NCBI RefSeq assembly: GCF_900105115.1
Contig: NZ_FNRV01000001.1
Span: forward strand, 1,054,001 to 1,118,000
DNA length: 64,000 nucleotides
From: Pseudomonas mohnii
GTDB taxonomy: Bacteria; Pseudomonadota; Gammaproteobacteria; Pseudomonadales; Pseudomonadaceae
Direction: 5' to 3'
Below the pieces are notes generated by a model. The model worked only from the letters and a program-made list of their open reading frames with translations. It did no database searches and was not told where the DNA came from. Both the position numbers and the translations under genes were made by a program. Below, in pieces: positions 28,146 through 64,000 of this stretch (positions are counted from its first letter, which is position 1; each line of letters opens with the position of its first letter).

Positions 28146-29576
28146 CTACCACTGCCGCTTGTCCGGGCGAGCGAGGCCGAGTTTTTCGATCCGGTAACGC
28201 AGCATGTCGCGGCTCAGGCCCAACAGGCGCGCGGACTTGGTGACGTTCCAGTCGGTCTTGTCGAGCATTTTGCGCACCATGTCACGCTCCACTTCCGGCA
28301 GGTTCATCGACTCGGTGCCGTTATAGGACGGACGTGGCTCGCTGGGGGGCGGCTCGTGCTGAAACATCGGCGGCTCGTCCATCAGGCTCAGGCAGACATT
28401 CAGCTGATGGGCGGCGATGGTGTCGCTCTGGGCCAGCAACACGGTTTGCTCGAGCATGTTGCGCAACTCGCGCACGTTGCCGGGCCAGCTGTAATTGAGC
28501 ATCAATTCTTCGGCCTGATCACTGAAATGCAGGTGTGGCTTGCCATAGCGTTTGCCATGAGTCGCCAGAAAGTGGCGGGCCAACAACAGAATGTCTTCCC
28601 CCCTGGCATACAGGCGCGGCACCTTGATCGAGATGATACGCAGACGGAAAAACAGGTCGCGGCGGAACTTGCCCTGCTGGACCATTTGTTCAAGGTTGCA
28701 GTTGGTGGCGCTGATCACCCGCAGATCGACTTTACGCTCCTTGACCGAACCGACCCGGCGAATCGTCCGGTCCTCCAGCAGCTTCAGCAGCTTGGCCTGC
28801 AGCAGCAGGTCCATCTCACCGATCTCATCGAGAAACAGCGTGCCGCCATCGGCCGCTTCGACCAGACCGAGGCGACGATCCTTGGCGTCGGTGAACGCAC
28901 CCTTCTCGTGACCGAACAACTCCGACTCCACCAGGTTGGACGGAATCGAGGCGCAGTTGAATTCGATGAACGGACCTTTGGCCCGCGGACCGTCGAAATG
29001 CAGGGCCCGGGCCACCAGCTCCTTGCCGGTGCCGGTTTCGCCTTCCACCAGTACCGGTGGCAGATCGGAGTTGGTCATGCGGCGTTCGGCGTCGAGCAAC
29101 TGGCTGATGGTGCCCTTGAGGTAAGCCATCGGTGCCGATTCACCGATCAGTGCCTGCACCCCTGATTTCTGCGCTTCGCGTTCCTGGTAGAACGACAGCG
29201 TGCGCTCCATCCGATCGGTGGCCAGGGCCTTGTCCAGCAGCAGCTTGAGCTCTGGCAAGGCCACCGGTTTGGTCACGTAATGGAATGCGCCTTCTTTCAT
29301 CGCCACCACGGCGTCTTCGACATTACCGTAGCCCGTCATCATGATCACTTTCAGATCCGGCGCGCTGATGCGCAATCTCTGGATCAGGTCGTGACCGCTC
29401 ATGCCCGGCAAGGAGTTGTCGGTCAGCACGACGTCGGGAACGAAGGTTCCCAGTTGCTCCAGCGCGTCTTCCGCCGAGTGGCAGACAGTCACCTCGAAGT
29501 CCTTGCGCTCCAGGTAGGTCTGAATATTCTCGGCGAGGAGTTCATCATCCTCGACCAGCAATATGCTGTGCTCCAT
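28146..29576 (-). CDS. NtrC-family sigma-54 response regulator (MnxR-like)
   Basis: A 476-residue activator with a receiver (residues 3-115, phospho-acceptor Asp53 in [10 protein letters not shown]), a sigma-54 AAA+ domain (Walker A GETGTGKE 179-186, Walker [14 protein letters not shown] from 244) and a C-terminal Fis-type helix-turn-helix ([20 protein letters not shown]). The sigma-54 contact loop is GAFTDA (226-231), a variant of GAFTGA. It overlaps the kinase gene by 32 bp and ends the multicopper oxidase operon. In P. putida GB-1 the NtrC-type regulator MnxR with two kinases is needed for Mn(II) oxidation; this gene fits that role by context. Confidence 0.9.
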
Positions 29577-31038
29577 ATTCCCCTCCCGTTGCCACTTTAA
29601 AATTGAGACGGACGCGGGTTCCTTCCTGCTCCTGGCTGGTCAGTTCGACCGAGCCTTCAAAGCGTTCCATGATTCTTTTGACCAGGGCAAGGCCAACGCC
29701 CAATCCCCCTTGTTTGGTCGTGAAGAACGGCTTGAAGACCAATTGTTGTTGTTGCCGGGTCATGCCCTTGCCGGTGTCATTGATCATCAGACTCACCTGC
29801 CCGGGCGACGTCGATTCGACATCGATGCTCAACACGCCGCCCTTGGGCATGGCTTCCAGCGCATTGGCGAACAGGCTATTGAGAATTTGCGTCAGCAGCA
29901 CCTGTTGGCTGACGACCGGTGGAACACTCTTGGGCGTGAAGCGCACTTCGACATTCGAGCGTTTGATCAAGGGGTCGAAGGCGCTCAGGGCGTCGTCGAC
30001 GGCCAACACCAGATCGACGTTTTCATCGTCGTCATTCACCGGGCGCAACGACACCAGCAACTCGCGGACCCAGCGTGACATGCGATCGACCTGGCTGATG
30101 ATGTCGCCGATGTTTTTCTGCGCGGTCTGGCTGGCGATTTCCTGGGCCAGTTCCGCGCTGGAGCGGATGTTCGCCAGCGGGTTACGCAAACTGTGGGCGA
30201 CCGCCGAGGACATTTCCCCCAGGGCGACAAACGTCTCGTTGGCGATCAGTTGTTTCTGCTGACTCTGCAGCAGCATGGCCGCCCGCCGCACGATCCAGAA
30301 CAGCCCCAGGTAAATGGCCGCGCCACCGAGCAGGGTCGCCAGCCAGATCGCCTTGAATCCACGCTGGATGCGCGCCACCAGATCGACCGGCTCCTTGTAG
30401 ATTTCCACCATGGCAATCACTTTGCTTTTGTCGGCGTTGAACATCGGGATGTAGTTCTCGACGAACAAATACTCGGGTTCGCGCAGCAGTTTTTGCTCGG
30501 GACGCTCCTCATCGATTTCGTGGTAGCTGGTGGACACCGTTTCCTTCATTTCGAAGGACTCGTCCAGCTCCTCGTCGCCTTCGACGCGCATGCCGATCAT
30601 TTCCGGGTTGGTCGACCAGACCACGGTGCGATCCAGTGCATACACCACCGCCAACAGACAATCCGGCAGGTGCTCGACATGGTCGAGAAACTCTATGCGG
30701 GCAGCGGCCCGAGAACCGGGATTGACGTCGGGGTAGGCGTTGTCCAGCCGCGGGTCGAGCATTTCGCCCATGGTCCTGGTCGTGGTGATCCCGGCATGGC
30801 GAATTTCTGCGTCACCAATGGCCTGAATGAATTGGGCGGTGAGCATCGAATCGCGCTCGATGCTCTCTTCGACCACGAAGCGCGTGGACACATAACCCAG
30901 CCCCAGGGCCACCGCAGCAATGATGAAAAAGCTGGCCAGGGAAAACCAGCGCACCAGATTGAAGGCCGGACGCCAGCCCTTGCCGGGTGCGGCCGGTGTA
31001 TCAGGCGCAGGTGTTTTTTGTTGTTCTAGTATCTGCAT
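29545..31038 (-). CDS. Membrane sensor histidine kinase (MnxS-like, copy 1)
   Basis: A 497-residue kinase: first membrane helix near 32-50, a periplasmic sensor of about 190 residues, second helix (AIWLATLLGGAAIYLGLFWIV), then a transmitter with the phospho-acceptor histidine in SSAVAHSLRNPLANIR and an ATPase domain (NSLFANALEAMP, DTGKGM, GGLGVGLALVKRIMERF). It is closely related along its whole length to the kinase at 35263-36711. Overlap with the response regulator gene makes them cognate partners. The periplasmic part has no recognised ligand fold. Confidence 0.9.
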   Translation of the reverse strand: MQILEQQKTPAPDTPAAPGKGWRPAFNLVRWFSLASFFIIAAVALGLGYVSTRFVVEESIERDSMLTAQFIQAIGDAEIRHAGITTTRTMGEMLDPRLDNAYPDVNPGSRAAARIEFLDHVEHLPDCLLAVVYALDRTVVWSTNPEMIGMRVEGDEELDESFEMKETVSTSYHEIDEERPEQKLLREPEYLFVENYIPMFNADKSKVIAMVEIYKEPVDLVARIQRGFKAIWLATLLGGAAIYLGLFWIVRRAAMLLQSQQKQLIANETFVALGEMSSAVAHSLRNPLANIRSSAELAQEIASQTAQKNIGDIISQVDRMSRWVRELLVSLRPVNDDDENVDLVLAVDDALSAFDPLIKRSNVEVRFTPKSVPPVVSQQVLLTQILNSLFANALEAMPKGGVLSIDVESTSPGQVSLMINDTGKGMTRQQQQLVFKPFFTTKQGGLGVGLALVKRIMERFEGSVELTSQEQEGTRVRLNFKVATGGEYGAQHIAGRG

Positions 31039-31139: not shown

Positions 31140-32255
31140 CTATTGCGCCAGGGTCTTATCGGGTGCCTTGCCGGGCGGCGCGATGGCGTGACGATGTTCC
31201 GGCTCTTCTGCGCGGGTAGCCAACGACGTCGCGACCGGATGCTGACGGTCGGTTTCTTCCTGGAGGAAGTCGATGATGGACTGCGCCGAATGCTCGTCCA
31301 TCCGCAGGTTGGGCATCGGTATCTTGTCGAAGCGTTCGAACAGCTCCAGGGCGATGGGGTCTTTTTCCGCGAGCATGCGGTCCGGCTCGCGAATCCAGCG
31401 GTTGAGCCAGGCCGGATCACGTTGTCGGGTCACGCCGACCAGATCGGGGCCAATGCTGCGCATGCCGATGCCCTGCCCGTCCAGCGGGCCAAGGCTGTGA
31501 CACGACGCGCAGCGGGTGCGAAACAGTTCTTCGCCATTGCTCGGCGGCCGGATGGGCGGGGCGTCGGCGTAGCTCTGCTCAATGCTCGGTTGCTTCCAGT
31601 TCTGCAAGGTGTTGGCCAGTTGATCGGCCAGAATCCACGGGTTTTCGAACGGCGACGCTTTCATCCAGCGCCCGGTTTGCTGGTTGCCGACAATCAGGCT
31701 CAGGTTGTGATCCTTGCTGCGCCCGTTATCGACACCTTCGATGAACAAGCCCAGTTTTTGCCGCAACTCGGTGACATCGGCGAATTCCCCGGTGAGGAAC
31801 TGCCACCCCGGCCCGACCTGGAAGCGTCGCGCATAAGCCTTGAGCACGGCGGGTGTATCGCTCAGGGGATCAATGCTGATGGAATAGAAAAAAACGTCCT
31901 TGCCGACCCGGTCGCCGAGCAATTTCTGCACCTGGCGCAAACGCGCGGTTTCCAGCGGACACGAGTCGCTGCAGGAGGTGAAGATGAAGTTGATCACCAC
32001 CACTTTGCCCTTGATCAGGTCATCGAAAAAACGCACCTGCCGACCGTCCTGATTGGTCAGCAGGGTGTTGGGGAAATAGTCGCCACCCCAGGGAGTGGCG
32101 GAGTCGGCGACCGCCGTGTCAGCGGCTGTCGGCAGGGGGGCGGGTGTCGACGGCGACTGGCCGGCGACCAGCAACTGGCTGGCCAGCACGCAGGTCGCCA
32201 ATACCAGCACCAGGTGCATGCCCCAGTCTCGTGAGCGTGGTGTTTGCCACTTCAT
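31140..32255 (-). CDS. SCO1/SenC-cytochrome c fusion protein
   Basis: A 371-residue exported or membrane-anchored protein joining two domains. Residues 55-220 are a SCO/SenC thioredoxin-like copper domain with the Cu ligands Cys95 and Cys99 (FTSCSDSCP) and His183. Residues 235-345 are a class I cytochrome c with heme motif CASCH (249-253). GGGAGG precedes ATG at 32255; ATG at 32276, which overlaps the oxidase stop codon, is an alternative. It directly follows the multicopper oxidase gene, so copper delivery to that oxidase or electron transfer from it is likely. Confidence 0.9.
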   Translation of the reverse strand: MKWQTPRSRDWGMHLVLVLATCVLASQLLVAGQSPSTPAPLPTAADTAVADSATPWGGDYFPNTLLTNQDGRQVRFFDDLIKGKVVVINFIFTSCSDSCPLETARLRQVQKLLGDRVGKDVFFYSISIDPLSDTPAVLKAYARRFQVGPGWQFLTGEFADVTELRQKLGLFIEGVDNGRSKDHNLSLIVGNQQTGRWMKASPFENPWILADQLANTLQNWKQPSIEQSYADAPPIRPPSNGEELFRTRCASCHSLGPLDGQGIGMRSIGPDLVGVTRQRDPAWLNRWIREPDRMLAEKDPIALELFERFDKIPMPNLRMDEHSAQSIIDFLQEETDRQHPVATSLATRAEEPEHRHAIAPPGKAPDKTLAQ

Positions 32256-32272
32256 GTCGACACCCTCCCGGT

Positions 32273-35080
<2,808 letters not shown>

Positions 35081-35115: not shown

Positions 35116-35136
35116 TTTTGCAATTAACTCGCCAAA
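35116..35136 (-). promoter_or_regulatory. Sigma-54 promoter-like element before the multicopper oxidase operon
   Basis: Read on the minus strand TTGGCGAGTTAATTGCAA has GG and GC separated by exactly 10 bp (GG at 35133-35132, GC at 35121-35120), close to the consensus TTGGCACGNNNNTTGCAA. The predicted transcription start, about 35108, is 28 bp before the ATG at 35080. Confidence 0.7.
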
Positions 35137-35262: not shown

Positions 35263-36711
35263 TCAGGGAATCAACTTGAACGACAGACGGACACGCGTAC
35301 CCTCGCCTTCGCGACTGTCCAGCGCCACAGCCCCGCCAAAACGCTCCATGATGCGCTTGACCAACACCAGCCCGACGCCAAGCCCGCCGCGCTTGGTGGT
35401 GAAGAACGGTCGGAAGGCCATGGCGCGCTGTTCTTCATTCATGCCTTTACCGGTATCGCTGATCACCACACAAACGCTACGGGAGTCGATCGGCTCCAGG
35501 GTGATGGTCAGCGTACCGCCCTCGTCCATGGCTTCCAGGGCATTGGCCAGCAAACTGTTGAGGATCTGCGTCAGCTGTATCGGTTGGCTCAACACCATCG
35601 GCGTGTCCTTGGGCTCGAACACGACATTGACCCGGGCCTTGGCGATCTGCTGTTCATAAGCGCCGAGCGTGTCATGCAGCGTGGCCACCAGGTTCACCGG
35701 CTCGGCCTCGTCACTCAGCGGTCGCAAGGATTGCAGCAACTCGCGCACCCACTTCGACATCCGGTCGACCTGACCGATGATGTCATTGATGTTCTTGTGC
35801 GCAGGCCCACTGTCGAACTCAAGGGCCAACTCGGCGCTTGAGCGAATGGTCGCCAGCGGGTTGCGCAAACTGTGGGCGACCGCCGACGACATCTCGCCCA
35901 GAGCGACAAAGGTTTCGTTGGTGATCAACTGCTTTTGCTGCTGCGCCAGCAGAATCGCCGCGCGCCGCACAATCCAGTACAACCCCAGGTAAATAATGCC
36001 GCCGCCCAGGGCCGTGGCCAGCCAGATCAGCACCAGGCCGCGCATCATGCGATTGATCAGGTCCTGGGGCTCTTTATAGATCTCGACCATCGCGGTGACC
36101 TTGTCGCCATCGGCATCGAACAGCGGAATGTAGTTCTCGATGAAGATGTATTCCGGTGGCGTCACGAACTTCTGTTCCATGCGGGTATTGTCCACATCGT
36201 GATAGCTGGCCGATACCGGAATCATTGAGTCGAAGGCCCGATCCAGGTCTTCATCGGCATGAATGGTGGTGCCCATCAACGCCGGGTTGGTCGACCAGAT
36301 CACCATGCGGTCGGGGGCATAGACGTTGGCCAGGATCACGTCGGGCAAGTGCGAAATGTGGTCGAGGAATTCACCGCGGGCATTGGCCCGGGCCATCGGG
36401 TCGACGTCGGGAAAGTCGCGGTCTTTGCGTGGGTCGAGCAATTCGCCCATGGTCCGCACGTTGGGGATCGACACATGGCGCACCTCGGCCGAGGCAATCG
36501 CGGTCAGGAACTGCGAGGTCAATAACGCATCGCGCTGCACGCTTTCGGTAATCACGAACCTGGTCGATACCGACCCCAACGCCACTGCCACCGTGCCGAT
36601 CACCACCAGGCTGATGAACGAAAACCAGCGCAGCAGATTGAACGGCTGCTTGCGCCTGCTCAAGCGGATGTCGCCCTTCTCGGACGCCAGTGTTTTTGCC
36701 TGCGTGGTCAT
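35263..36711 (-). CDS. Membrane sensor histidine kinase (MnxS-like, copy 2)
   Basis: A 482-residue paralogue of the kinase at 29545-31038: first helix LRWFSFISLVVIGTVAVALGSV, periplasmic sensor with the shared VRTMGELLDPRKDRDFPDVDP and PPEYIFIENYIPLFDADGDKV segments, second helix, H-box SSAVAHSLRNPLATIR, and ATPase motifs NSLLANALEAMDEGG, DTGKGM and GGLGVGLVLVKRIMERFGG. Start at 36711 (GGAAAAACG upstream). It has no response regulator of its own nearby, so it likely shares the MnxR-like regulator, as MnxS1 and MnxS2 do in P. putida GB-1. Confidence 0.88.
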   Translation of the reverse strand: MTTQAKTLASEKGDIRLSRRKQPFNLLRWFSFISLVVIGTVAVALGSVSTRFVITESVQRDALLTSQFLTAIASAEVRHVSIPNVRTMGELLDPRKDRDFPDVDPMARANARGEFLDHISHLPDVILANVYAPDRMVIWSTNPALMGTTIHADEDLDRAFDSMIPVSASYHDVDNTRMEQKFVTPPEYIFIENYIPLFDADGDKVTAMVEIYKEPQDLINRMMRGLVLIWLATALGGGIIYLGLYWIVRRAAILLAQQQKQLITNETFVALGEMSSAVAHSLRNPLATIRSSAELALEFDSGPAHKNINDIIGQVDRMSKWVRELLQSLRPLSDEAEPVNLVATLHDTLGAYEQQIAKARVNVVFEPKDTPMVLSQPIQLTQILNSLLANALEAMDEGGTLTITLEPIDSRSVCVVISDTGKGMNEEQRAMAFRPFFTTKRGGLGVGLVLVKRIMERFGGAVALDSREGEGTRVRLSFKLIP

Positions 36712-36825
36712 GGACGTTTTTCCGACAAAACCCCTACAGGATTTATAGCCCACTAATGGCAGTTTGCCCGACATTGGGCTTGATTCCCCCCCGCCCTTCC
36801 CCACCCATGCCGCTATCCCCACCTA

Positions 36826-36844
36826 CCCCCAATGCTGGGGAAAG
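36826..36844. promoter_or_regulatory. Palindrome, candidate activator site (sister-protein/curli operon)
   Basis: CCCCAATGCTGGGGAAAG has 5-bp arms (CCCCA 36827-36831, TGGGG 36836-36840) and lies about 90 bp upstream of the sigma-54 element at 36929 and 115 bp upstream of the divergent kinase gene, so it could serve both directions. Confidence 0.5.
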
Positions 36845-36928: not shown

Positions 36929-36946
36929 TTGGTATGGAAGTTGCCG
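36929..36946 (+). promoter_or_regulatory. Sigma-54 promoter-like element before the sister-protein/curli operon
   Basis: TTGGTATGGAAGTTGCCG has GG (36931-36932) and GC (36943-36944) spaced by exactly 10 bp, near the consensus TTGGCACGNNNNTTGCW. The predicted transcription start is about 36956, 48 bp before the ATG at 37004. Confidence 0.65.
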
Positions 36947-37003
36947 AAGCCCTGTCAACTGACCCATCCCCAAGGGGCAGGTACTCTGATAGAGGGAATA
37001 CAC

Positions 37004-51811: not shown

Positions 51812-51812
51812 G

Positions 51813-55098: not shown

Positions 55099-55121
55099 CC
55101 GAACGGATTTGCATTGAATCG

Positions 55122-55144: not shown

Positions 55145-56098
55145 TCAATCATCGTCAACCCGTTCGATCCGATGACTGGATCGCAGCTGCGCCAGTGCCT
55201 GTAGACGAGCCTGAACCTGTTTCTGCCGGGCAAGGTACGCCCGGACCATGTCAAGTCCTTGCTCCTCTGTGACATCGGCGGCCTCCACTCGGTTCTCCAG
55301 ATAGATCAAATGCCAACCCACTGCCGTGCGCACCGGGTCGCTGACGGCTCCCGGCGCCAGGGCAAAGGCTGTCGCTTCGAACTCCGGCAGCATTCGCCCC
55401 CGGGGAAAGTAGCCCAGTTCGCCGCCCTCGCTGGCCGAGGCGTCTTCAGACCCCTCCCTGGCGACACTGGCAAAATCGGCACCTTGCGTGATTCGGGTAC
55501 GCATACCTTCCAAGCGTAGTCTTGCGGCTTCAACAGTGGAAGCATCCGCTCCCTGAGGCACCTTGATCAGGATATGCCTGACCTGTACTTCCTCGGGCCG
55601 GTTCATCTCGGCGCGGTGCTCCTCGAAAAATGCCCGTACCTGTTGTTCATCCGGCTCGCCGACTTGGGTCAGGTCGGCGAACACTTGCTGAGCCGCCAGT
55701 TCACGGCGGGTGTATTCGGCATAGCTGGCCTCATCGAAACCGGCGTCTTCCAGGCGCCGGGCGAACACCTCGGCACCACCGAAGGCCTGGCGGGTCTTCT
55801 CGACCTGGCTTTGCACCGTGGCATCGCTGATCACCACCCCGCGCTTGAGCGCCTCCTGCCAGAGCAGTTCCTTGTCAATCAAGGCATCCAGCGCCGCCTT
55901 GCGCAGCTGCTTGTAAGCCTTGGGATTGCGAATATTGCCCACCGAGCGCCCCTGATCCTCCAGGTACTCGGCGAAATAACGCTCCAGGCGCAGTTGGGAA
56001 ATTTCCTCGCCATTGACCCGCGCCACGGCCGGACCGTTGCTGCAGTATGCCGCTGGCACCCACAGCGCCCACAGAACCAGCAAAGTGTTGAGTTTCAT
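55145..56098 (-). CDS. Exported parvulin-type peptidyl-prolyl isomerase (SurA/PrsA-like)
   Basis: A 317-residue periplasmic foldase. Signal peptide KLNTLLVLWALWVPAAYC; the following Ser-Asn could follow a lipidated Cys, but the box is weak. The N-terminal SurA_N-like helices (RKAALDALIDKELLWQEALKRGVVISD) are followed by a parvulin domain (VQVRHILIKVPQGAD; FASVAREGSEDASASEGGELGYFPRGRMLPEFEATAF; AVGWHLIYLENR). It lies 13 bp after the cytochrome-binding protein gene and likely folds secreted products of this locus. Confidence 0.9.
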   Translation of the reverse strand: MKLNTLLVLWALWVPAAYCSNGPAVARVNGEEISQLRLERYFAEYLEDQGRSVGNIRNPKAYKQLRKAALDALIDKELLWQEALKRGVVISDATVQSQVEKTRQAFGGAEVFARRLEDAGFDEASYAEYTRRELAAQQVFADLTQVGEPDEQQVRAFFEEHRAEMNRPEEVQVRHILIKVPQGADASTVEAARLRLEGMRTRITQGADFASVAREGSEDASASEGGELGYFPRGRMLPEFEATAFALAPGAVSDPVRTAVGWHLIYLENRVEAADVTEEQGLDMVRAYLARQKQVQARLQALAQLRSSHRIERVDDD

Positions 56099-56111: not shown

Positions 56112-57662
56112 TCAAGGCATCGCGGCAATCGGTTTGTAAGGGGCAACCAGGAAAAAACGCTGGTCAGGCAAGTCCACGGTGACGATGTGCGCGCCACTGA
56201 GGCCCTGGCGCCGACCCGGCCCGAAACTGATCAGCGGGGTCAGCCCGGTATCGAAGTCATGCAGGCCTTCCAGGGCCTCGATCAGTTTTTCGCGGCTGGC
56301 GTCACGCCCGGCCTGCTTCATGCCTTCGCTCAAGAGCATCATCGAGCTGAACGCACCGACTTGCAGAACCGCATGCTCGCCGCCCAGTTTCTGTCGCTCG
56401 CGCACCTGGGTCAGGGCCAGGCGCCCGGCCCGCGTCCAGTCGCTGGGCACGAACGGATAGGCCAGGAATACCCGACGGGAAAAGCCGCTGGGTACTTGCA
56501 GCAAATCACCCGCCACCTGATTCGAAGCGGCGAACAGGTAAGGCACCTGGCCCGCCGTCTGCAAGCGCTCGGCGAGCAGACTGAAACCGCCGCTGCTGCC
56601 CATGTAAAACACCGAACGCGAACCCAACGGCAACTCATCCTGCGTCGCCCCATAGGCTTGCAGGCGCACTTTCTCCCAGGCGTTGTCTTGCAGGTACTGG
56701 GCGAGTTTCTCTGCGGCCAGCCGTTGACCAGGCTCGTCCGGGTAGGCGATCAGCGTCGGCCCCTGCAGCACCCGCAAGGTGGCGGTGGCGTAATTGGCCA
56801 GTGCAATCATTTGTTCGCGCAGCCCCGGCAGCGGCTCGAAGATCTCTCGACTGGCCTGGGTCGTGCCTTGCAACGACAGCGGCCCGATCAGGGGCACACC
56901 GGCCTGCTCCAGGCGTGCTGCCATGTCCGCTTCCAGCGCTGGCGCCAGCGGTGCGATCAGCGCGAACACCTGCTCCTTGTCGATCAACTGGTCCAGCGCG
57001 CGCACGGCGCTGGCGCGGTCGGGGCCGGGATCGAGGATGGTCAGGCGCAACTGCCGACCATGAATCCCGCCCGCCTCATTGATGCGCGCCACGCAACCGT
57101 TGAGCACCGCCGCCACCGTGGCGCCCTCCTCGCTCAGCGCGCCCGTGCCCGGTAACAAGGTGCCCAGGTGCAGACTGTCAGCGTCGAGGCCCGGATCACG
57201 GTCATCGGCCAGGCGCTTGAGGTACGCCGTGAGGTTGTGCTGATCCTTCATCGACAACACGAACCTGGGCATCGCCGGGTCGAGTCGATTGTTGCCGGGA
57301 TCGCGCCCCTCCTGAATCGCCCTGGCCAGCGTGCCCTCGGTGTAGGCCGGGTAACTGCGCCCGTTGATTTGCTGCTGGCCATAGGTGCTGGAGAGCCGCG
57401 TCCAGGTCAGGTCCGGCGGCCGCACGCCGCCTTCGGGACGGCCGATGCCATCGCGGCCATGGCAATTGACACACGGCAGGCTGGTGGCCGGCAGCAACAT
57501 GCCAGCCGCTCCGACCCGGGCCATGATCGGCTCGCCACGGGCCGACACGCCCTCCCGGTACAGCCGTTTACCGGCGCTTTCGCTGGGGGTCAGCGTCATC
57601 GCCTGGGCGCTCAGGCTGATGCCAGACACCATGAGCAGGCCGAGGAAGAGGGCTTTTTTCAT
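56112..57662 (-). CDS. Cytochrome c-periplasmic binding protein fusion
   Basis: A 516-residue exported protein. After the signal peptide (KKALFLGLLMVSGISLSAQA) residues 25-155 are a c-type cytochrome with heme motif CVNCH and a later methionine in LDPAMPRFVLSM. Residues 160-516 are a type I periplasmic binding protein of the branched-chain amino-acid family (LHLGTLLPGTGALSEEGATVAAVLNGCVARINEAGGIHGRQLRLTILD, and FYMGSSGGFSLLAERLQTAGQVPYLF). The fusion suggests a redox sensor or electron shuttle tied to ligand binding. It is 9 bp from the SCO gene. Confidence 0.88.
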   Translation of the reverse strand: MKKALFLGLLMVSGISLSAQAMTLTPSESAGKRLYREGVSARGEPIMARVGAAGMLLPATSLPCVNCHGRDGIGRPEGGVRPPDLTWTRLSSTYGQQQINGRSYPAYTEGTLARAIQEGRDPGNNRLDPAMPRFVLSMKDQHNLTAYLKRLADDRDPGLDADSLHLGTLLPGTGALSEEGATVAAVLNGCVARINEAGGIHGRQLRLTILDPGPDRASAVRALDQLIDKEQVFALIAPLAPALEADMAARLEQAGVPLIGPLSLQGTTQASREIFEPLPGLREQMIALANYATATLRVLQGPTLIAYPDEPGQRLAAEKLAQYLQDNAWEKVRLQAYGATQDELPLGSRSVFYMGSSGGFSLLAERLQTAGQVPYLFAASNQVAGDLLQVPSGFSRRVFLAYPFVPSDWTRAGRLALTQVRERQKLGGEHAVLQVGAFSSMMLLSEGMKQAGRDASREKLIEALEGLHDFDTGLTPLISFGPGRRQGLSGAHIVTVDLPDQRFFLVAPYKPIAAMP

Positions 57663-57671: not shown

Positions 57672-58298
57672 TCAGCGACCGACCACAGGCATTGTCAGCA
57701 ACTGCAACCGCTGGGCAATGGCGGCGGCGGGTGCATCGGGCCGGATTTTGCTCCAGCGCTTATTGGCCACGTCGCCGACGATCAACTGCGTGGAGTGCTG
57801 CTCGGGGGTCGGCACGATCTGGCCGATGCGCCCCAGGACAAGGTCCATCTGCGCCTTGTCGCCGGTAAGGAAAAGCCAGTGGGGGCCATCGACGCCCTGC
57901 TTCAAGGTGTAAGCCTTGAGTACCGCCGGGGTGTCCCGCAGCGGATCACTGGTAAGGGAAATAAAGGTGATGCCGTCCGCCTTGTCGCCCAGCACTTCGC
58001 GTACTTCCTTGAGCTTCTGGGTGATCAGCGGGCAGGCGTCAGTGCAGCTGGTGAAAATCACGTTGAGCAGCACCACCCGGTTCTGCAGCGCGTCGCTGTA
58101 GAAGCGCAGGGTGTTGCCGTTCTGGTCCTGCAACGGGGTGTCGGTGAACCAGGTTTTTGCGTCGCGGGTGCCGCCCGCCGGGTGTGCCGTGGTTGCAGCA
58201 GACGCCGGTGCCGGTTCTTGATGGCCTTCGTGGGCGAAGGCCAGCGCACTGAACAGGCAAAGGCAGGCACTCAGGGCAATGCGCTCGAGGGTTCTCAT
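57672..58298 (-). CDS. SCO1/SenC-family copper chaperone 1
   Basis: A 208-residue exported SCO protein with signal peptide RTLERIALSACLCLFSALAFA, a His-rich start (HEGHQEP), the copper pair in FTSCTDACPLITQKL and the third ligand histidine in PEQHSTQLIVGD. SCO proteins load copper into oxidases or reduce their cysteines. Its start overlaps the second SCO gene by 4 bp (ATGA). Confidence 0.93.
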   Translation of the reverse strand: MRTLERIALSACLCLFSALAFAHEGHQEPAPASAATTAHPAGGTRDAKTWFTDTPLQDQNGNTLRFYSDALQNRVVLLNVIFTSCTDACPLITQKLKEVREVLGDKADGITFISLTSDPLRDTPAVLKAYTLKQGVDGPHWLFLTGDKAQMDLVLGRIGQIVPTPEQHSTQLIVGDVANKRWSKIRPDAPAAAIAQRLQLLTMPVVGR

Positions 58299-58951
58299 GG
58301 CTGATTCTCCATGGCAACGGCCGTGTGCTTGGCGTGGGCATTGCGCTGGCCGCTGAGTTTCTCGACTTCACGACTCAGCACCGCCGGGTCGGTGAAACCG
58401 TAATAACGCGTCCAGTGACGGCTGTTGCCATCGCCGACCAGAATCAGCGGCGCATGGTTCTTGAAGTCGCCGCTGAAGGTGCCAAGGCCCTTGAGGGTTT
58501 CGTTGACCGACTGCGTGGTGCCAGTCAGCCAGCTCCAGCCCGGGCCGTTCTGGAAGGTCCGGGCATAGTCGTTCAGGCGCTTGGCGTCATCGCGCTGCGG
58601 GTCGATGCTGATCGACACCAGTTGCACCTCGGTACCGACCCGTGCGCCGAGCTGTTTCTGCACCTTGCCCATGATCGAAGACACCACCGGGCAGACCGTG
58701 GTGCAGCTGGTGTAGATGAAGCTCATGACCACGATCTTGTTGCTGACCAGGTCTTTTTCCAGGCGGACGGTTTTGCCGTTCTGGTCCACCAGCGCCACGT
58801 CGGCGAATTTGACTTGGGTGCTCTCGGGGGTGGCGCTCTTGGCCTGCATGTCGTGACCGGCATGTTCATCCGCCGAGTGGGCCAGCGCCTGGCCGATGCC
58901 GACAGCCAACAGGCAGAAGGTCAGCAGGCCACGGTGTGCAAATCGGTTCAT
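58295..58951 (-). CDS. SCO1/SenC-family copper chaperone 2
   Basis: A 218-residue exported SCO protein. Signal peptide NRFAHRGLLTFCLLAVGIGQALA is followed by the metal-binding-like stretch HSADEHAGHDM, the copper motif YTSCTTVCPVVSSIMGKV and the histidine in FKNHAPLILVGDG. It is less than 40 percent like its neighbour by eye, so the pair is not a recent duplication. The gene is 13 bp downstream of the propeller gene, in the oxidase operon. Confidence 0.93.
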   Translation of the reverse strand: MNRFAHRGLLTFCLLAVGIGQALAHSADEHAGHDMQAKSATPESTQVKFADVALVDQNGKTVRLEKDLVSNKIVVMSFIYTSCTTVCPVVSSIMGKVQKQLGARVGTEVQLVSISIDPQRDDAKRLNDYARTFQNGPGWSWLTGTTQSVNETLKGLGTFSGDFKNHAPLILVGDGNSRHWTRYYGFTDPAVLSREVEKLSGQRNAHAKHTAVAMENQP

Positions 58952-58964: not shown

Positions 58965-60917
58965 TCAATGAGTTTCGCCGGGGGTCACCCGAACACTGGC
59001 AAAGGTCTGGTCGCCGAAATTCGCCCCCAGTGACGCCGCCCGCACGTGCAGGTACCAGGCGCCTTGTCGATTGAGGTTGACCGGGGCTTCATACACCCCG
59101 TTGCCGACTTCCAGGGCCGCGACCTCCCGAGGCCGTGAAGTCGGGGCCAGGAAGTAACGCACCTGAACATCCTTCAGCCCACTGCGCTCGGTTTTCTGCT
59201 TGCCCTGGACGATGCGAAAACGCACGACATAGGGGTTGCCCAACGTGGCGGTGGAAGTGTCGAGCATGAACTCCACGCTCGGCACGCCAGCATGAGGCTC
59301 GAGGTCCTTGTCGGCCTCGACCACGGTGGTGAAGCAATGAATGATATTCGGCTGATTGAGCAGGAACGCCACGTCGAAGCGCCCGGCCGGCGGCAGCTTG
59401 ATCCGCGCGCTGTACAACCCCGGCTCGACTTCGCGCAGGCTGCGGTCGATCACCAGCGCCGCCCGCGCCACTTGCCCTCGATTGGGGTAACCGGACATCG
59501 GGGCGTTCATGCCTTCGGCGTAGAAGTAGGTGGTGTTGTCCACCGGGTTGACCACGAACACCGCGTTGTCGTCCCGCGACACCGCCAGGCTCGCGGCCAA
59601 TGGCAGGTCACCGGCCAGGCGCGGCGCCTGGGGCCCGGCTTCGAAGCCCTGGCTGATGGGCGTACGGCCTTCGCCGAGTGACGCCAGGTTGATCATCGTC
59701 ACCTTGGGCGAGGCCAGTCCGCGGATATAGGCGTAGGCCTTGGTGAACACCACCTGATAGGGCTCGGCGGACACGTCCAGTTCATGGATCAACGAGTCGG
59801 TGGCGGCGTCGATGACCGCCGCCTGGTTCTCCAGGGTATTGAGCACGATGCCGAAACGCCCGTCGGCGCTGAACCCCATCGGGCCGAGGCCCTGCTTGAC
59901 CTTGATCACCCGCCGCACCGACTGGCTCGCCGCGTCCACCACCGTAACCGTGCCGTCCTTGCCGTCGGCCACATAGGCCGCGCCGGACAGTGGCGAGTAC
60001 ACCACCGACAACGGGTGCGAGCCGGTCTTGAGTTGTTTGACGATGGTCAGGCTGGCGATATCGATGATGCTCAGGGTGCCGTCGTCGCGATTGGTGACGA
60101 AGGCGAAACGGCTGTCCTTGCTGAAGGCAATTTCGTGATGGCCGCCCCCGGTCGCCAGGTGCTTGAGGGTTTTCAGGCTGTGGGTGTCGATCACCGTGAC
60201 CCCGGACCGCTGCGCTGTCTGTGCGTTGTTGCCGACCCACAGCAGGCGTTCGTCCGGTTGCAGCGCGACACGTACCGGGTTTGTGCCGGCCGCCACCGAA
60301 TCCACCAATTTGAATTGCTCGCTGTCGATCACCGCGACTTCACCCGCCGTCGGCATCGACACGAACACCCGCTTGTTGTCCCTGGGGGTGACCCAGTCCA
60401 TCGGCGGTTGCTTGATGTCGATCCGCGCCAGGGTGCTGGTAATGCCACCCACCGACACCGACGGATCGACCACCGAGACGCTGGCATCGCGGTTCATCAC
60501 CATGAGGAAGTAGCTGTTGAGATCGAGCAGGGGCCGCGCGCCGATGCTCGACTTGAGGAACACCCCGACCCGCGCCTTGCAACTCTGTTCGCGGCCCTGG
60601 GCCTGGTCGGCGGCAAGGGTTTGCGGGTCCAGCCAGGCGCCCGGCGCAACGCCCGCCAAGGGTTGGCCGGAAGCCTTGTCGGTAATGCGGAACTGCACGT
60701 CGGCGAACTGCCCTTCGCGCAATACGCCGTCCGCGGCCAGCGGCTTGACGTCGAGCGCCACCGACACGCCGTCACGCTCCAGCGACTGTCCGCTGCGGGG
60801 ATCGGGCAACGCAACGTCGCTGAGCAAGGCCGGAGGTGACAGGCGCCATACTCCGAGGCAGATCAGCGCCACGCCGACAATCAACGCGCCGCTGGCGATT
60901 TTGATGGTCCTGTTCAT
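58965..60917 (-). CDS. YncE/cytochrome d1-like beta-propeller protein, membrane anchored
   Basis: A 650-residue protein. An N-terminal anchor (IASGALIVGVALICLGVWRL) is followed by a beta domain and a seven-bladed propeller of the YVTN type: RVFVSMPTAGEVAVIDSEQFKLVDSV, RFAFVTNRDDGTLSIIDIASLTIVKQL and AYVADGKDGTVTVVDAASQSVRRVIKV, the repeats found in YncE and nitrite reductase d1. No heme c motif is present. A C-terminal Ig-like domain (GRFDVAFLLNQPNIIHCF; VNLNRQGAWYLHVRAASL) closes the protein. It follows the large oxidase by 152 bp containing a REP. Confidence 0.85.
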   Translation of the reverse strand: MNRTIKIASGALIVGVALICLGVWRLSPPALLSDVALPDPRSGQSLERDGVSVALDVKPLAADGVLREGQFADVQFRITDKASGQPLAGVAPGAWLDPQTLAADQAQGREQSCKARVGVFLKSSIGARPLLDLNSYFLMVMNRDASVSVVDPSVSVGGITSTLARIDIKQPPMDWVTPRDNKRVFVSMPTAGEVAVIDSEQFKLVDSVAAGTNPVRVALQPDERLLWVGNNAQTAQRSGVTVIDTHSLKTLKHLATGGGHHEIAFSKDSRFAFVTNRDDGTLSIIDIASLTIVKQLKTGSHPLSVVYSPLSGAAYVADGKDGTVTVVDAASQSVRRVIKVKQGLGPMGFSADGRFGIVLNTLENQAAVIDAATDSLIHELDVSAEPYQVVFTKAYAYIRGLASPKVTMINLASLGEGRTPISQGFEAGPQAPRLAGDLPLAASLAVSRDDNAVFVVNPVDNTTYFYAEGMNAPMSGYPNRGQVARAALVIDRSLREVEPGLYSARIKLPPAGRFDVAFLLNQPNIIHCFTTVVEADKDLEPHAGVPSVEFMLDTSTATLGNPYVVRFRIVQGKQKTERSGLKDVQVRYFLAPTSRPREVAALEVGNGVYEAPVNLNRQGAWYLHVRAASLGANFGDQTFASVRVTPGETH

Positions 60918-60958
60918 ACCCACACTCCCCTTCAGATCTGTGTCTGCCTCATCGCCCC

Positions 60959-61049
60959 CTGTGGGAGCGAGCCTGCTCGCGAAGAGGCCAGCACATCCAA
61001 CATTCATGTGTCTGACACTCCGCCATCGCGAGCAGGCTCGCTCCCACAG
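60959..61049. repeat. REP inverted pair
   Basis: Arms of 24 bp, with GTGGGAGCGAGCCTGCTCGC (60961-60980) on the left and its complement at 61028-61047, separated by a spacer of about 40 bp. It lies between the large oxidase gene and the propeller gene and may reduce downstream expression. Confidence 0.93.
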
Positions 61050-61069
61050 GTGTTGCGTTGTTGCCCGGC

Positions 61070-64000
61070 CTACGGCGCCGGTGCCGGCTCCGGTTCGTTG
61101 GTCACCCGCAGCAATCCCCACAACCCGGCGGTGTTGCCATAGGCGCCGTAATCGCGGAACAGGTAATCACCCGGTATCGCGTTGCTGCCCCCGGCACTCG
61201 GGTGCATGAAGCTGAAGTGCGCCGCCGGCAGGATGCTTTCGTGGGCGCCGACGTACATCGACATCGGGTTGTAGCCAAACCGCACCGAACCCACGCCAGG
61301 CGTGCCCATCGGGTAGCCACCGGTGTCGCTCTTCTCGGGCTGGAACGGGTTGACCGACCAGACGTGACCATCGAGCTGGAAGGTGGTGCCGCGACTGCCG
61401 CCGGTCGGCATCAGGATGTGCGTGCGGAACGGTTGCCCCGGTTTGACGTACAGCACCGGCGTCTGCGGATCGCCGCCCACCAACGCGTTGCTGAAAGCCA
61501 TGTGCGCGTTCTGCACATCGCCATAGCCATGACCGTCGGCGTGGCCGAACGGCGCATCCGGGGCGAGACCGAAGCGGTACCACATCGGCTCTGTCTTGAA
61601 GTTGATGGCCATGCTGGAGTTGTCCTGCGGGTCGGTCGGCACGCCCGCCTCCGAGGCAATGCCTTCCACCGGACGACCATTGGCCCAGCGCATGTTCAAG
61701 GCCTTCTGCCAGACCATGGCAAAGTCGCGATAGGGGGTTTGCCCCGGCGCGGTGACGGTCGCATTGACCTTGCGTGTGTCTTCCGTCCAAGTGGCGCCCA
61801 CCGGCAGGATGCTCATCGCTGCGCCCAGGCCTTTTTGCGGCTGCTTGATCACGTCTGCCGGCGTGATGTTCAGCCCGCCGAACTCCACCGCCGTGGCGTT
61901 GATGTTGTCGACACTGCGGCCCAGTTGGGTGATCGGCTTGCCTTCACGCTCCAGGTGCCCGGCGTAGTACTGATAGGTACGGGTCGGGTACGGTCCGGTG
62001 TTGCCCACCCGTGGCGGCACGGTCTGGATCGGGTTGGTGCCGACGTTGGTGCCGTCGGATTTGGTGATGTCGTAAGCCAGCAATTGCGCATGCAGGCCCA
62101 CGGTGCTCGATGGCCGCAGCAGGTTATTGCTGAAGGTGGTCGAGCCCTCGCCGGCGTTGCGGTCACGCTTGACCATGCCCATCACGGTGGCCATCTGGGG
62201 CAGGTCCGGCATCACGCTGGGCAGACGGTTTTCCAGGGTGATGTTGATGCAGTCACCGGCCGCCGCACGCAGTACAAGCGGTTCCACCGGCACGCCGGGT
62301 TTGAGTTTGCCGGTGACCGGATCGAGGTCGGCCTTGCGCACATAGAGGATCGCGGTCGGGTCATGCAACGGCCCGCTTTGCCCGCCGATGGTGAAGGTCA
62401 GACCGTCTTCAGGGTCGGTCACGGTGACTTGTGGAATGCTCACCGCCCGCGAGTTGAAGACCAGGGTGCCACCGGCCGGATTCAACGGCCCGCCGACGTG
62501 TTGCCCAAGCCCCGCCGAGTCACCGATGGCCAGCCCCAAGGGGTTGCCGAGGATGTCGTTGGCCAGGGCCGCGACCACTTCATAGTTGCGTTGCGGGGTC
62601 GGCCGGGTGCCGATGCCGTTGGGGTTGGCGCCGATCCGTGGACAGGTGCCATCGAAGGCCACGGTGTTGCGCATGCCGGCCGGTTTCGGGTTGTTTGGCA
62701 GCGCGAACAGGTCGTTGCGCTGGGCCGTGTAGTTGCGCATCACACCCCAGATGCCGCTCCAGTAACCTTCCAGCGAAGCGTCCATGGAGTACAGGTAGTC
62801 ACCGGTGGTGGCCGCCGAACTGGAGAGCATCGAGACCGGCGCAATGAAGCCCATCTGCTCGGAGATCCCGATCATCTGCGACGCGCGCCAGCCGGAGTTG
62901 GAGCTGTTGCCGAAACCGGAACCGCTTTGCAGCCACTTCACGCCGTGCAGGGTGACGTTGTGTTCCTCTTCGTGACCGCCGGCATGCACCCGCAGCCGCA
63001 CGTTGTCGCCGGTGTAGGTGCGCAGCATCGGGGTGAACGGATCGCCCGGTTCCGCGCCGCCCTTGTTGATGTGCGGCGGGAACAGGGTGGTGCCGCCGGT
63101 GGGACCGGTGGCCGCGCTGATCAGGTTCGGCGCCAGGTTCATCGCCGGGATCGCACGGTCGGTACGGCTTTGCATGGCGTACGCCAGATCGCCGCCCAGG
63201 CCATCGGCCTGCATGCCGCGCTTGCCGTCAGGGCCGACCTTGTTCGGGTCGTACACCCGCAGGGCCAGCGGTTCGTTGCGGTAATTGACCACGAACATGC
63301 CGGGGTCATCGACCGATATCGCTTGCGGGCAAGGCCGGCTCGGGCAGCCCGGCATCAGACCGCCACGGGCTTCGACCACTTGCTCAAGCAGGGTCTCGGC
63401 TTCCTTGCGCACCGGCGGATTGATCGCGTAGCGGAAGCTGTCGGCGGTGGCCGGGAAGCGTTGCGCGTCAGGAATGCCATTGGGACCTGCGCCCACGTAC
63501 ACCCCCGCTTCATAGGCGTGCTGGAAGTCGCTGTATTCGAGGAAGAACTCACGGAAGCTGTCGTTCTTGCCGTCACCGTCCAGGTCGCCGGTGGAGATCA
63601 CCGCTTGCCACGACGTCGGCCCGCCGTCCTGCCGCGCGCCGCTGTACAACGGCTCGCCGGTTTCGGCGTGGAACCAGGTGGAACCGGCCGGTTCGGCCAG
63701 CACGGTGGCGTACAGGCCAATCTGTTGGTGCGTCGATGGGCCGAGGTGGTCATGGGTGAAGATGGTGCCCAGGCCACGGTCGACACCCTTGGTGTTCACC
63801 ACCGGATCGACGAACCAGCGTTGCATCGCGGTGCGCGCGCCGACCCAGTCGGCCCGGCCGTATTGGCCGAAGAACGGATGTGCCTTGGCTTTCGGGCACG
63901 CGGCCGTGCCGTCGCGCGGGTCGGTGCCTTCGCACTGGTTGAACTGGCGAATGGCGTGGATGCGTTCTTGCACGGCACCCGGTGAAAGGACGCCGTCCTC
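61070..64000 (-). CDS. Giant multicopper oxidase, MnxG-like (N-terminal part beyond window)
   Basis: The frame is open to the window edge, giving the C-terminal 976 residues of a larger oxidase. Copper-type motifs are IFTHDHLGPSTHQ near the visible start, GGHEEEHNVTLHGVKWLQ and, close to the end, HILMPTGGSRGTTFQLDGHVW and AAHFSFMHPSAGGSNAIPGDYLFRDYG. The size, the THDHLGPS block and the neighbours (two SCO proteins, propeller, isomerase) fit MnxG, the large Mn(II) oxidase of P. putida GB-1. The calcium-type loop STGDLDGDGKNDSFREF is also seen. Copper-site assignment is incomplete without the missing part. Confidence 0.8.
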   Translation of the reverse strand, partial: EDGVLSPGAVQERIHAIRQFNQCEGTDPRDGTAACPKAKAHPFFGQYGRADWVGARTAMQRWFVDPVVNTKGVDRGLGTIFTHDHLGPSTHQQIGLYATVLAEPAGSTWFHAETGEPLYSGARQDGGPTSWQAVISTGDLDGDGKNDSFREFFLEYSDFQHAYEAGVYVGAGPNGIPDAQRFPATADSFRYAINPPVRKEAETLLEQVVEARGGLMPGCPSRPCPQAISVDDPGMFVVNYRNEPLALRVYDPNKVGPDGKRGMQADGLGGDLAYAMQSRTDRAIPAMNLAPNLISAATGPTGGTTLFPPHINKGGAEPGDPFTPMLRTYTGDNVRLRVHAGGHEEEHNVTLHGVKWLQSGSGFGNSSNSGWRASQMIGISEQMGFIAPVSMLSSSAATTGDYLYSMDASLEGYWSGIWGVMRNYTAQRNDLFALPNNPKPAGMRNTVAFDGTCPRIGANPNGIGTRPTPQRNYEVVAALANDILGNPLGLAIGDSAGLGQHVGGPLNPAGGTLVFNSRAVSIPQVTVTDPEDGLTFTIGGQSGPLHDPTAILYVRKADLDPVTGKLKPGVPVEPLVLRAAAGDCINITLENRLPSVMPDLPQMATVMGMVKRDRNAGEGSTTFSNNLLRPSSTVGLHAQLLAYDITKSDGTNVGTNPIQTVPPRVGNTGPYPTRTYQYYAGHLEREGKPITQLGRSVDNINATAVEFGGLNITPADVIKQPQKGLGAAMSILPVGATWTEDTRKVNATVTAPGQTPYRDFAMVWQKALNMRWANGRPVEGIASEAGVPTDPQDNSSMAINFKTEPMWYRFGLAPDAPFGHADGHGYGDVQNAHMAFSNALVGGDPQTPVLYVKPGQPFRTHILMPTGGSRGTTFQLDGHVWSVNPFQPEKSDTGGYPMGTPGVGSVRFGYNPMSMYVGAHESILPAAHFSFMHPSAGGSNAIPGDYLFRDYGAYGNTAGLWGLLRVTNEPEPAPAP

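What the first reader, a model, noticed from the sequence alone, without database searches (positions are those of the whole stretch)
28146..64000. Candidate metal-oxidation island joining multicopper oxidases, SCO factors, two-kinase control, curli and a secretion machine
In 36 kb there are two very large exported multicopper oxidases, three SCO domains, two heme c fusions, two paralogous kinases with one NtrC-type regulator, curli csgBA and csgEFG, two large exported sister proteins and a pilus/T2SS-like machine. The kinase/regulator/oxidase set matches the Mn(II) oxidation genes MnxS1, MnxS2, MnxR, MnxG and McoA described in P. putida GB-1 (established knowledge); the tight link to curli and a dedicated secretion operon is what I find unusual. 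It suggests that the oxidase and the amyloid matrix act together, for example as a mineral-collecting layer.
Basis: partly seen in the sequence, partly recalled or inferred. Interest (0 to 1): 0.85.

Follow-up and report, generated by a model that had tools for sequence, protein, structure and literature searches.

The report
Manganese-oxidation island with curli and secretion
A soil Pseudomonas carries, side by side and apparently under one switch, the enzymes that turn dissolved manganese into mineral, a protein-export machine and sticky amyloid fibres; the parts are known, but the shared control signal and two companion surface proteins look unreported.

Summary
It is the known Pseudomonas Mn(II)-oxidation system: the large oxidase scores 3934 bits on NCBI's MnxG model (cut-off 3100), with McoA, MnxS1/S2/R, SCO and cytochrome genes and an Xcm-type T2SS. 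An Xcm cluster in P. putida is in print (passage); I recall that its 2003 description already placed csgEFG-like genes beside it, so the curli/secretion link is not new. Added here: (1) MnxG and island-type CsgG have the same distribution in 129 Pseudomonas genomes (42 both, 87 neither), though linked genes are not independent. (2) The two sister proteins head the csgBA operon, also in three moved copies read; one shares C-terminal modules with 25 longer McoA frames. (3) Sigma-54-like promoters precede four operons; three also have CCCC-N6-GGGG, whose strict form CCCCAN4TGGGG occurs just three times in the 6.59-Mb genome, once at each. I propose one MnxR regulon building oxidase, exporter and amyloid matrix. 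That the oxidase sits on curli is untested; an Aromatoleum relative has MnxG and the T2SS but no CsgG.

The parts
28146..29576 (-). mnxR: NtrC-type response regulator (receiver, sigma-54 ATPase with GAFTDA, Fis-type HTH)
   Evidence: Pfam; motif; 67-95% matches in relatives
29545..31038 (-). mnxS2-like sensor histidine kinase
   Evidence: Pfam; 62.6% identical to the other kinase. The names S1/S2 follow the order given for DSV-1 in PMC11409713 (passages)
31140..32276 (-). SCO protein fused to a c-type heme domain (CxxxC at 102, CxxCH at 256)
   Evidence: Pfam (heme domain only marginal); motifs
32273..35080 (-). mcoA: exported multicopper oxidase, 935 aa; short form without the C-terminal tail
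   Evidence: Cu-oxidase_2; copper motifs; nearest solved structures bilirubin oxidases 7.3e-22; relatives
35119..35134 (-). sigma-54-like promoter of mcoA (TGGCGAGTTAATTGCA); an imperfect palindrome half (7 of 8) at 35232-35245
35263..36822 (-). mnxS1-like sensor histidine kinase (start probably near 36711)
   Evidence: Pfam
36827..36840 (+). palindrome CCCCAATGCTGGGG, putative MnxR upstream activating site of the sister-csgBA operon (the divergent mnxS1 shares the interval)
   Evidence: one of 3 CCCCAN4TGGGG sites in the genome; exact CCCCN6GGGG in 24 of 25 related loci
36930..36945 (+). sigma-54-like promoter TGGTATGGAAGTTGCC of the sister-csgBA operon
   Evidence: 21 of 25 related loci score 13.5 or more; shuffled 0.0
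36998..38350 (+). sister protein 1 (sis1), exported, about 450 aa, no Pfam or NCBIfam domain over the cut-offs
38386..40632 (+). sister protein 2 (sis2): N-terminal part like sis1, then two Big_9 domains and a C-terminal beta-rich module
   Evidence: Pfam; alignment
40692..41153 (+). csgB curlin nucleator (three Pfam curlin repeats)
   Evidence: Pfam 5e-18
41181..42629 (+). csgA curlin (19 Q-x-G-x2-N-x5-Q matches)
   Evidence: Pfam; motif count
43521..45058 (-). IS element (integrase-core and HTH_Tnp_1 genes) inserted between csgA and csgG; a passenger
   Evidence: Pfam
45315..46226 (-). csgG curli export channel
   Evidence: Pfam 2.8e-81
46210..46629 (-). csgF
   Evidence: Pfam 1.2e-30
46626..47015 (-). 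csgE; overlaps its neighbours csgF and xcmX by 4 bases each
   Evidence: Pfam; overlaps
47012..47752 (-). xcmX-like pseudopilin-related protein (start probably near 47551)
   Evidence: reading by eye of FTYLGALLLI segment; no Pfam hit; 51-62% in relatives
47526..47900 (-). pseudopilin (GspG-like)
   Evidence: N_methyl 3.4e-10, T2SSG marginal
47905..48384 (-). pseudopilin
   Evidence: N_methyl 3.1e-08
48381..50306 (-). secretin GspD-like with TPR-containing N-terminus (start probably near 50216)
   Evidence: Pfam; NCBIfam below all equivalog cut-offs
50213..54303 (-). inner-membrane and motor part: PilP/GspC-like 50213-50734, GspM 50731-51465, PilN 51266-51931, PilM-like 51813-52691, GspE ATPase 52597-54303
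   Evidence: Pfam (GspE 7e-125; GspM and PilN weak; PilP-like and PilM-like named by place and length)
54388..54996 (-). rec: receiver-only response regulator heading the T2SS-csgEFG operon (start probably near 54921)
   Evidence: Pfam; 34.6% identity over 107 residues to the MnxR receiver
54990..55005 (-). sigma-54-like promoter TGGCATGAAGTGTGCG of the rec-T2SS-csgEFG operon
55081..55138 (-). two CCCC-N6-GGGG palindromes (55081-55094, 55125-55138), putative MnxR sites of the T2SS-csgEFG operon
   Evidence: (84 of 84 loci)
55145..56098 (-). SurA/PpiC-type prolyl isomerase
   Evidence: Pfam
56112..57662 (-). heme c (CVNCH at 64) fused to periplasmic-binding protein domain
   Evidence: Pfam; motif
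57672..58951 (-). two SCO1/SenC proteins (57672-58298, 58295-58951), CxxxC in both
   Evidence: Pfam
58965..61121 (-). beta-propeller protein of the mnxG operon
   Evidence: Pfam; NCBIfam YVTN repeat
61070..64000 (-). mnxG, C-terminal 976 codons; the whole gene ends at 66895 in window coordinates (L004:1070-6895), with sigma-54-like promoter at 66945-66960 and palindrome at 67060-67073
   Evidence: NCBIfam NF041487 3934 bits

Best explanation
The island is the Mn(II)-oxidation locus of a P. moorei-like Pseudomonas. Known or shown here: MnxG and McoA are exported multicopper oxidases of the P. putida GB-1 type; MnxS1/S2 and MnxR are their published regulators; the Xcm-type T2SS is a published export route. 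Inferred here: MnxR, activated by the two kinases when Mn(II) is present, binds CCCC-N6-GGGG sites 85-115 bases upstream of sigma-54 promoters and switches on at least mnxG, rec-T2SS-csgEFG and sis1-sis2-csgBA (and, through weaker sites, mcoA) together. SCO proteins load copper; the T2SS carries oxidases and probably the sister proteins over the outer membrane; CsgGEF lays down CsgA/B fibres. The sister proteins, encoded in the curlin operon and sharing tail modules with long-form McoA, are surface adaptors that hold oxidase and growing Mn oxide at the amyloid matrix. The last step is the least supported.
For: MnxG model 3934 bits against cut-off 3100; copper motifs intact. Co-occurrence in 129 genomes: MnxG with island-type CsgG 42/0/0/87, with sister 42/0/1/86, with McoA 40/2/2/85. 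csgE overlaps xcmX and csgF by 4 bases each. Order sis1-sis2-csgB-csgA in 7 of 8 loci read, among them three where the operon lies over 100 kb from mnxG (G057, G110, G102). 25 McoA frames in 20 genomes carry sister-2-like C-terminal modules (21 of them the tail around residues 564-759; three read in full). Sigma-54-like sites: mnxG 93% of 91 loci at 13.5 or more, sis1 84% of 25, mcoA 38% of 16 (mean 13.2), rec 20% of 84 (mean 13.3, nearly all at one place with the same hexamers); shuffles average 9.5-9.7. CCCCN6GGGG exact: rec 84 of 84, sis1 24 of 25, mnxG 60 of 91, mcoA 2 of 16 (15 of 16 with one mismatch); shuffles 1-4%. CCCCAN4TGGGG occurs three times in the own genome, all at these promoters, and in 10 genomes 30 of 66 sites lie at sis1, rec, mnxG, mnxS2 or ltp/gspG. 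An rpoN insertion in Pseudomonas MS-1 abolished Mn oxidation and GB-1 rpoN restored it (PMC11409713, passages); sigma-54 sites of mnxG and mcoA were predicted in GB-1 (PMC11930936, passages).
Against: No expression, binding or mutant data here. I found the palindrome by looking at the alignments, so the loci are not an independent test, and the genomes are related. The backwards pattern also occurs three times in the own genome, so the count is at chance level and only the places are informative. mcoA has only near matches; the mnxG loci without an exact palindrome number 31 of 91. At the moved mnxS2 and ltp/gspG sites a sigma-54 match was found for only some. ltp (mean 12.9) and gspG (12.4) also score above shuffles although the gspG site lacks the -24 GG. 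Aromatoleum has MnxG and the T2SS without CsgG; six other class genomes with MnxG relatives lack CsgG too. G021 lost mnxG and has no CsgG yet keeps sisters, MnxR/S and three McoA, so sisters may serve McoA rather than curli.
Confidence: 0.6

Rival explanations
1. Two modules sharing a locus and a regulator without working together: Mn oxidation with its T2SS is one unit, curli is a stationary-phase or biofilm trait switched on by the same signal, and the sisters belong to curli.
For: Aromatoleum has the first unit without CsgG; three other Pseudomonas have a different curli system (CsgG 49-52% identical) without MnxG.
Against: Sister-2 modules occur at the end of 25 McoA frames; G021 keeps sisters with McoA but no curlin hit beside them; csgEFG sits inside the T2SS operon.
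Confidence: 0.25
2. The palindrome belongs to another regulator (for example a metal or global regulator), and MnxR acts elsewhere.
For: Nothing here ties the site to the MnxR protein; NtrC-type regulators of other specificity occur in any Pseudomonas.
Against: Sites sit 85-115 bases before sigma-54 elements, as enhancers of NtrC-type regulators do; MnxR is the only such regulator in the island and lies beside the sister operon; the site is kept in G021, which has MnxR but no MnxG.
Confidence: 0.1
3. Mere gene clustering by shared descent: one ancestral acquisition carried along, so co-occurrence and order say nothing about function.
For: All co-occurrence counts concern linked genes in related genomes; MnxG and CsgG lie within 60 kb in 39 of 42 genomes.
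Against: In five genomes the sister operon lies more than 100 kb from mnxG and is still there, and palindromes are found at the separated operons.
Confidence: 0.05

Closest known systems
Mn(II)-oxidation genes of Pseudomonas putida GB-1 (mnxG, mcoA, mnxS1/S2/R)
   Same: same oxidases, SCO, beta-propeller, cytochrome/periplasmic-binding fusion and SurA genes in the mnxG operon; same kinases and regulator (operon contents from passages of PMC11409713 and PMC8218464)
   Different: in GB-1 mnxG, mcoA and mnxS1/S2/R lie in three places (gene numbers), here in one island; GB-1 McoA is covered only 80% by the DSV-1 protein, which fits the extra tail, and the tail is absent here
Pseudomonas sp. DSV-1 and MS-1 Mn-oxidation loci
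   Same: gene numbers in PMC11409713 leave exactly 17 genes between the SurA gene and mnxS1; I count 17 here without the IS (rec, 9 T2SS genes, csgEFG, csgAB, two sisters): probably the same island in proven Mn oxidisers
   Different: the paper does not name those 17 genes (no occurrence of secretion or curli); identity of each is my inference
Xcm Gsp-related secretion pathway of P. putida GB-1 (de Vrind et al. 2003)
   Same: T2SS-like machine required for secreting the Mn-oxidising factor; I recall from the abstract, not seen here, xcmT1/xcmS as a pair and xcmX, T2, T3 beside csg-like genes
   Different: here xcmT1/xcmS-like gspG/gspF flank mnxG; in P. putida-type genomes they flank mnxS1/S2/R
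Curli (csg) systems
   Same: CsgA/B repeats, CsgG, CsgE, CsgF above Pfam cut-offs
   Different: csgEFG is fused into the T2SS operon, csgBA is preceded by the two sister genes, NtrC-type control in place of the CsgD known from enterics (recalled)

Membership tests
MnxG manganese-oxidising multicopper oxidase | score over NCBIfam NF041487 cut-off along the full model | tested here: met
   3934 bits against 3100, model positions 1-1894 of 1894
MnxG manganese-oxidising multicopper oxidase | intact copper-binding motifs | tested here: met
   HIFHLH 478, HCHFYPHFAQGM 532, HIH 945, HDH 1048
MnxG manganese-oxidising multicopper oxidase | oxidation of Mn(II) | not testable with these tools
   needs an assay
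McoA | orthology to GB-1 McoA with multicopper motifs | tested here: inconclusive
   motifs met; no GB-1 sequence or McoA model was searched; 72-77% to long-form relatives
MnxS1/MnxS2/MnxR pathway | two paralogous kinases beside one sigma-54 response regulator | tested here: met
   same order in relatives
MnxS1/MnxS2/MnxR pathway | required for Mn oxidation in this strain | not testable with these tools
   needs a deletion
Xcm-type T2SS | GspE, GspD, GspF, GspG and xcmX-like genes beside csg genes | tested here: met
   compared with the recalled description only
Xcm-type T2SS | exports MnxG/McoA | not testable with these tools
   signal peptides seen by eye only
Curli | CsgA, CsgB, CsgG, CsgE, CsgF over Pfam cut-offs | tested here: met
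Curli | amyloid fibres on the cell | not testable with these tools
   needs Congo red or microscopy

The most novel reading that the evidence does not exclude
Mn(II) oxidation in Pseudomonas is one MnxR-sigma-54 regulon that builds an extracellular mineral factory: oxidases, a private secretion machine, curli fibres and adaptor proteins (the sisters, or the tail of long-form McoA) that dock the oxidase on the amyloid so that Mn oxide grows on a scaffold outside the cell.
Probability: 0.35. Interest if true: 0.8.

Novelty: new member of a known kind. Interest (0 to 1): 0.58.

Why it matters
Why bacteria oxidise Mn(II), and where on the cell the oxide forms, is an old open question. If one regulator switches on oxidase, exporter and amyloid together, Mn oxide is a built structure and not a side reaction, and simple deletions (csgA, sis1/sis2, the palindromes) test it in a laboratory strain. 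The palindrome also gives a way to find further members of the regulon.

Tried and rejected
Considered and rejected: that the big oxidases are ordinary copper-resistance CopA/CueO proteins (MnxG model met; McoA is far below the CueO cut-off, 66.6 against 525 bits). That the curli link is peculiar to this genome (it recurs). That the sister proteins are known domains (only Big_9/cadherin-like in sister 2; no PDB match to their profile at E 1 or better).

Led nowhere: structure prediction (switched off), so no fold for the sisters. The spread of the sisters outside Pseudomonas stays open: in 368 other class genomes only parts from profile position 401 onward matched, but just two candidates per genome were scored; the protein searches list only the best 120 of 1606 and 1793 hits. 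Paper search for xcmX/xcmT1/csmE was swamped by an unrelated abbreviation. The genus-wide palindrome count (median 5 in 42 MnxG genomes, 3 in 87 others; means 6.07 and 3.26; backwards pattern means 2.45 and 2.37) is weak, since two genomes (G057 with 17, G072 with 24) raise the mean; in G057 by a repeated sequence. In one search my script printed four mnxG sites under the label rec; the total of 30 of 66 is not affected (rec 11, sis1 9, mnxG 4, mnxS2 3, ltp/gspG 3). In one search the hits under mnxS1, mnxS2 and sis2 largely come from paralogues and from the shared sis1/mnxS1 interval, and are not counted as separate support. Reading frames first scanned for csgF were wrong; one search used the right one.

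The literature claim of newness rests in an open-access library only; subscription papers, among them de Vrind 2003 and Geszvain and Tebo 2010, were not read.


Full report
What is there. The window is G000:C1:1054001-1118000 of a 6.59-Mb genome in two contigs. The MnxG of Pseudomonas moorei is the closest named one, 98% in the best segment. Reading frames, domains and motifs give, from left to right: mnxR, a kinase, a SCO-heme fusion, mcoA and a second kinase on the minus strand; sis1, sis2, csgB and csgA on the plus strand; an IS element; csgG, csgF, csgE, xcmX-like, two pseudopilins, secretin, five inner-membrane and motor genes and a receiver-only regulator on the minus strand; then SurA/PpiC, heme-PBP, SCO, SCO, beta-propeller and mnxG; and beyond the window a transglycosylase, gspG and gspF.

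Identity. MnxG meets the NCBI equivalog model over its whole length; its nearest solved relative is a chain called MnxG, 9bxa, E 4.3e-71. McoA has no model of its own; its copper motifs are complete and its nearest solved relatives are bilirubin oxidases. The published contents of the mnxG operon (propeller, SCO, SCO, cytochrome/substrate-binding protein, SurA; passages of PMC8218464 and PMC11409713) match gene for gene. In DSV-1, a proven Mn oxidiser, the gene numbers printed in PMC11409713 leave 17 genes between SurA and mnxS1, the number I count here without the IS. The paper does not mention them, so this is my inference.

What is known of the link. A P. putida review says that P. putida strains have csgEFG and csgAB and that a general secretory pathway was found by transposon mutants in Mn oxidation (PMC3056050, passages and section 11). 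An Xcm cluster of GB-1 and KT2440 is named in PMC4509608 (passage). I recall from the abstract of de Vrind et al. 2003, which is not held, that xcmX lies beside csg-like genes. So the association of T2SS and csgEFG with Mn oxidation is in print; I found no paper in the library that holds mnxG and curli together other than that review, or curli, manganese oxidation and multicopper oxidase other than it.

Distribution. In 129 Pseudomonas genomes (own included), MnxG is found in 42, McoA in 42, sister 2 in 43 and CsgG in 45. Three of the 45 CsgG are a distant type (49-52%) in genomes without MnxG; with these set apart, MnxG and CsgG coincide in all 129 (the split by identity was made after seeing the data). 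MnxG without McoA: G060, G062; McoA without MnxG: G021, G022 (G022 only a fragment). MnxG and CsgG lie within 60 kb in 39 of 42 (median gap 14.9 kb), 178 kb apart in one and on different contigs in two; MnxG and sister 2 lie within 60 kb in 29, more than 100 kb apart in five, on different contigs in eight. Linked genes in related genomes are not independent trials, so I give no weight to the Fisher values.

Order. In the divergent Pseudomonas read the T2SS runs directly into csgEFG, with 4-base overlaps xcmX/csgE and csgE/csgF here. sis1-sis2-csgB-csgA is one block in 7 of 8 loci, among them three moved away from mnxG; the eighth, G021, shows no curlin hit after sis2. In Aromatoleum (L085, L199) mnxG, its operon, rec and the T2SS up to xcmX are contiguous, with no csg gene in the 36 kb read and no CsgG in the genome at E 1e-10. 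In three other class genomes with MnxG relatives (G429, G161, G282) a more distant gspE/F/G/D set lies near mnxG, again without CsgG. In three more (G156, G451, G428) I saw no T2SS hit in the stretches read, one of which was only 6 kb. The T2SS-MnxG tie thus seems older than the curli tie.

Sister proteins and McoA tails. sis1 and sis2 are about 50% alike over sis1's length. sis2 ends in two Big_9 domains and a further module. In one search, 21 matches to residues of about 564-759 and matches to neighbouring parts in four more frames lie in the same open frames as McoA matches: 25 McoA frames in 20 genomes. Three were read in full. The short McoA of the island type, as here, shows none; two longer frames (G027, G021:C82) show none at the cut-off either. 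Shared modules are consistent with a common job for sisters and oxidase tails, such as export or attachment; they do not prove it. Big_9 itself is a common domain, so the tail module carries the argument.

Promoters. Scoring all 330-base upstream pieces with one sigma-54 table: mnxG mean 15.7 in 91 loci, sis1 13.7 in 25, rec 13.3 in 84, mcoA 13.2 in 16; shuffled means 9.5-9.7. Most other genes have means of 8.3-11.3 with shuffles of 9.1-10.4; exceptions are ltp 12.9 (72 loci), gspG 12.4 (75) and scoC 12.3 (only 2). Alignments showed a palindrome, and one search counted it: exact CCCC-N6-GGGG in rec 84 of 84, sis1 24 of 25, mnxG 60 of 91, mcoA 2 of 16 (15 of 16 with one mismatch, against 31% of shuffles); other true operon-internal genes 0 to 4 loci each. 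Its end lies mostly 85-120 bases before the -24 element, a second one of rec at 70-80. In 28000-70500 exact matches occur four times, all at rec (two), sis1 and mnxG; in 1-28000 none. The stricter CCCCAN4TGGGG occurs three times in the whole genome, at sis1, rec and mnxG. The pattern read backwards also occurs three times, so the count is what chance gives; the three places are not. In ten genomes (own and nine chosen by me) 30 of 66 sites lie at sis1 (9), rec (11), mnxG (4), mnxS2 (3) or ltp/gspG (3), including operons separated from mnxG. Of the other 36 sites I read four neighbourhoods besides one in G015: the four (L176, L179, L180, L182) had no sigma-54 match and no island gene; the G015 site (L178) has a sigma-54-like match before two genes of unknown kind.

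Published support for the control step: sigma-54 and IHF sites predicted for mnxG and mcoA in GB-1 (PMC11930936, passages), and an rpoN insertion in MS-1 without Mn oxidation, restored by GB-1 rpoN (PMC11409713, passages). To my knowledge from these passages neither extends the prediction to curli or the T2SS.

Natural experiments. G021 has lost mnxG and the propeller between ltp and sco1 (203 bases apart, L198), shows part of sco2 and no ppiC hit, ends in gspD at a contig end, and keeps MnxR/S, sisters and three McoA. G049 keeps mnxG and csgEFG while sis1, sis2, csgA and the island mcoA look decayed together. G087 has a second mnxG (75%) 1.2 kb from a different curli cluster without the palindrome.

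Verdict. An ordinary, well-conserved Mn-oxidation island of a known kind, with a new and testable proposal: curli, sisters and T2SS belong to one MnxR regulon. Confidence 0.6 for that wiring, 0.35 for the scaffold reading.

Noticed in passing
window 43521-45058: An IS element with integrase-core and HTH_Tnp_1 genes sits between the convergent csgA and csgG without breaking them.
   Followed up: partly
L196 (G087:C4:268000-287900): A second mnxG (75% identical) lies 1.2 kb from a different, complete-looking curli cluster (csgE, F, A, B, G at 27-50%); no palindrome found between them.
   Followed up: partly
L197 (G049:C1:4390000-4409900): sis1, sis2, csgA and the island copy of mcoA look decayed together while mnxG, mnxR/S and csgEFG are intact.
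   Followed up: partly
L198 and L129 (G021): mnxG and the propeller gene are missing between ltp and sco1; regulators, T2SS, sisters and three McoA genes remain.
   Followed up: partly
L004:9659-10357: A glycine-rich, histidine-repeat protein follows gspF; many draft contigs end about 2.85 kb upstream of mnxG, near this gene, probably because it is repetitive.
   Followed up: no
window 54388-54996: A receiver-only regulator, 35% like the MnxR receiver, heads the T2SS-csgEFG operon; in L077 it lies beside mnxR. It may compete for phosphate from MnxS or steer secretion.
   Followed up: no
L178 (G015:C1:3104500-3114500): A palindrome with a sigma-54-like site 180 bases on lies before two exported proteins of unknown kind; a possible further regulon member.
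   Followed up: no
G000:C2:28092-29882 (L001, L003): The 116.6-kb second contig carries a 655-codon frame with two Cu-oxidase_3 matches, probably a copper-resistance oxidase.
   Followed up: no
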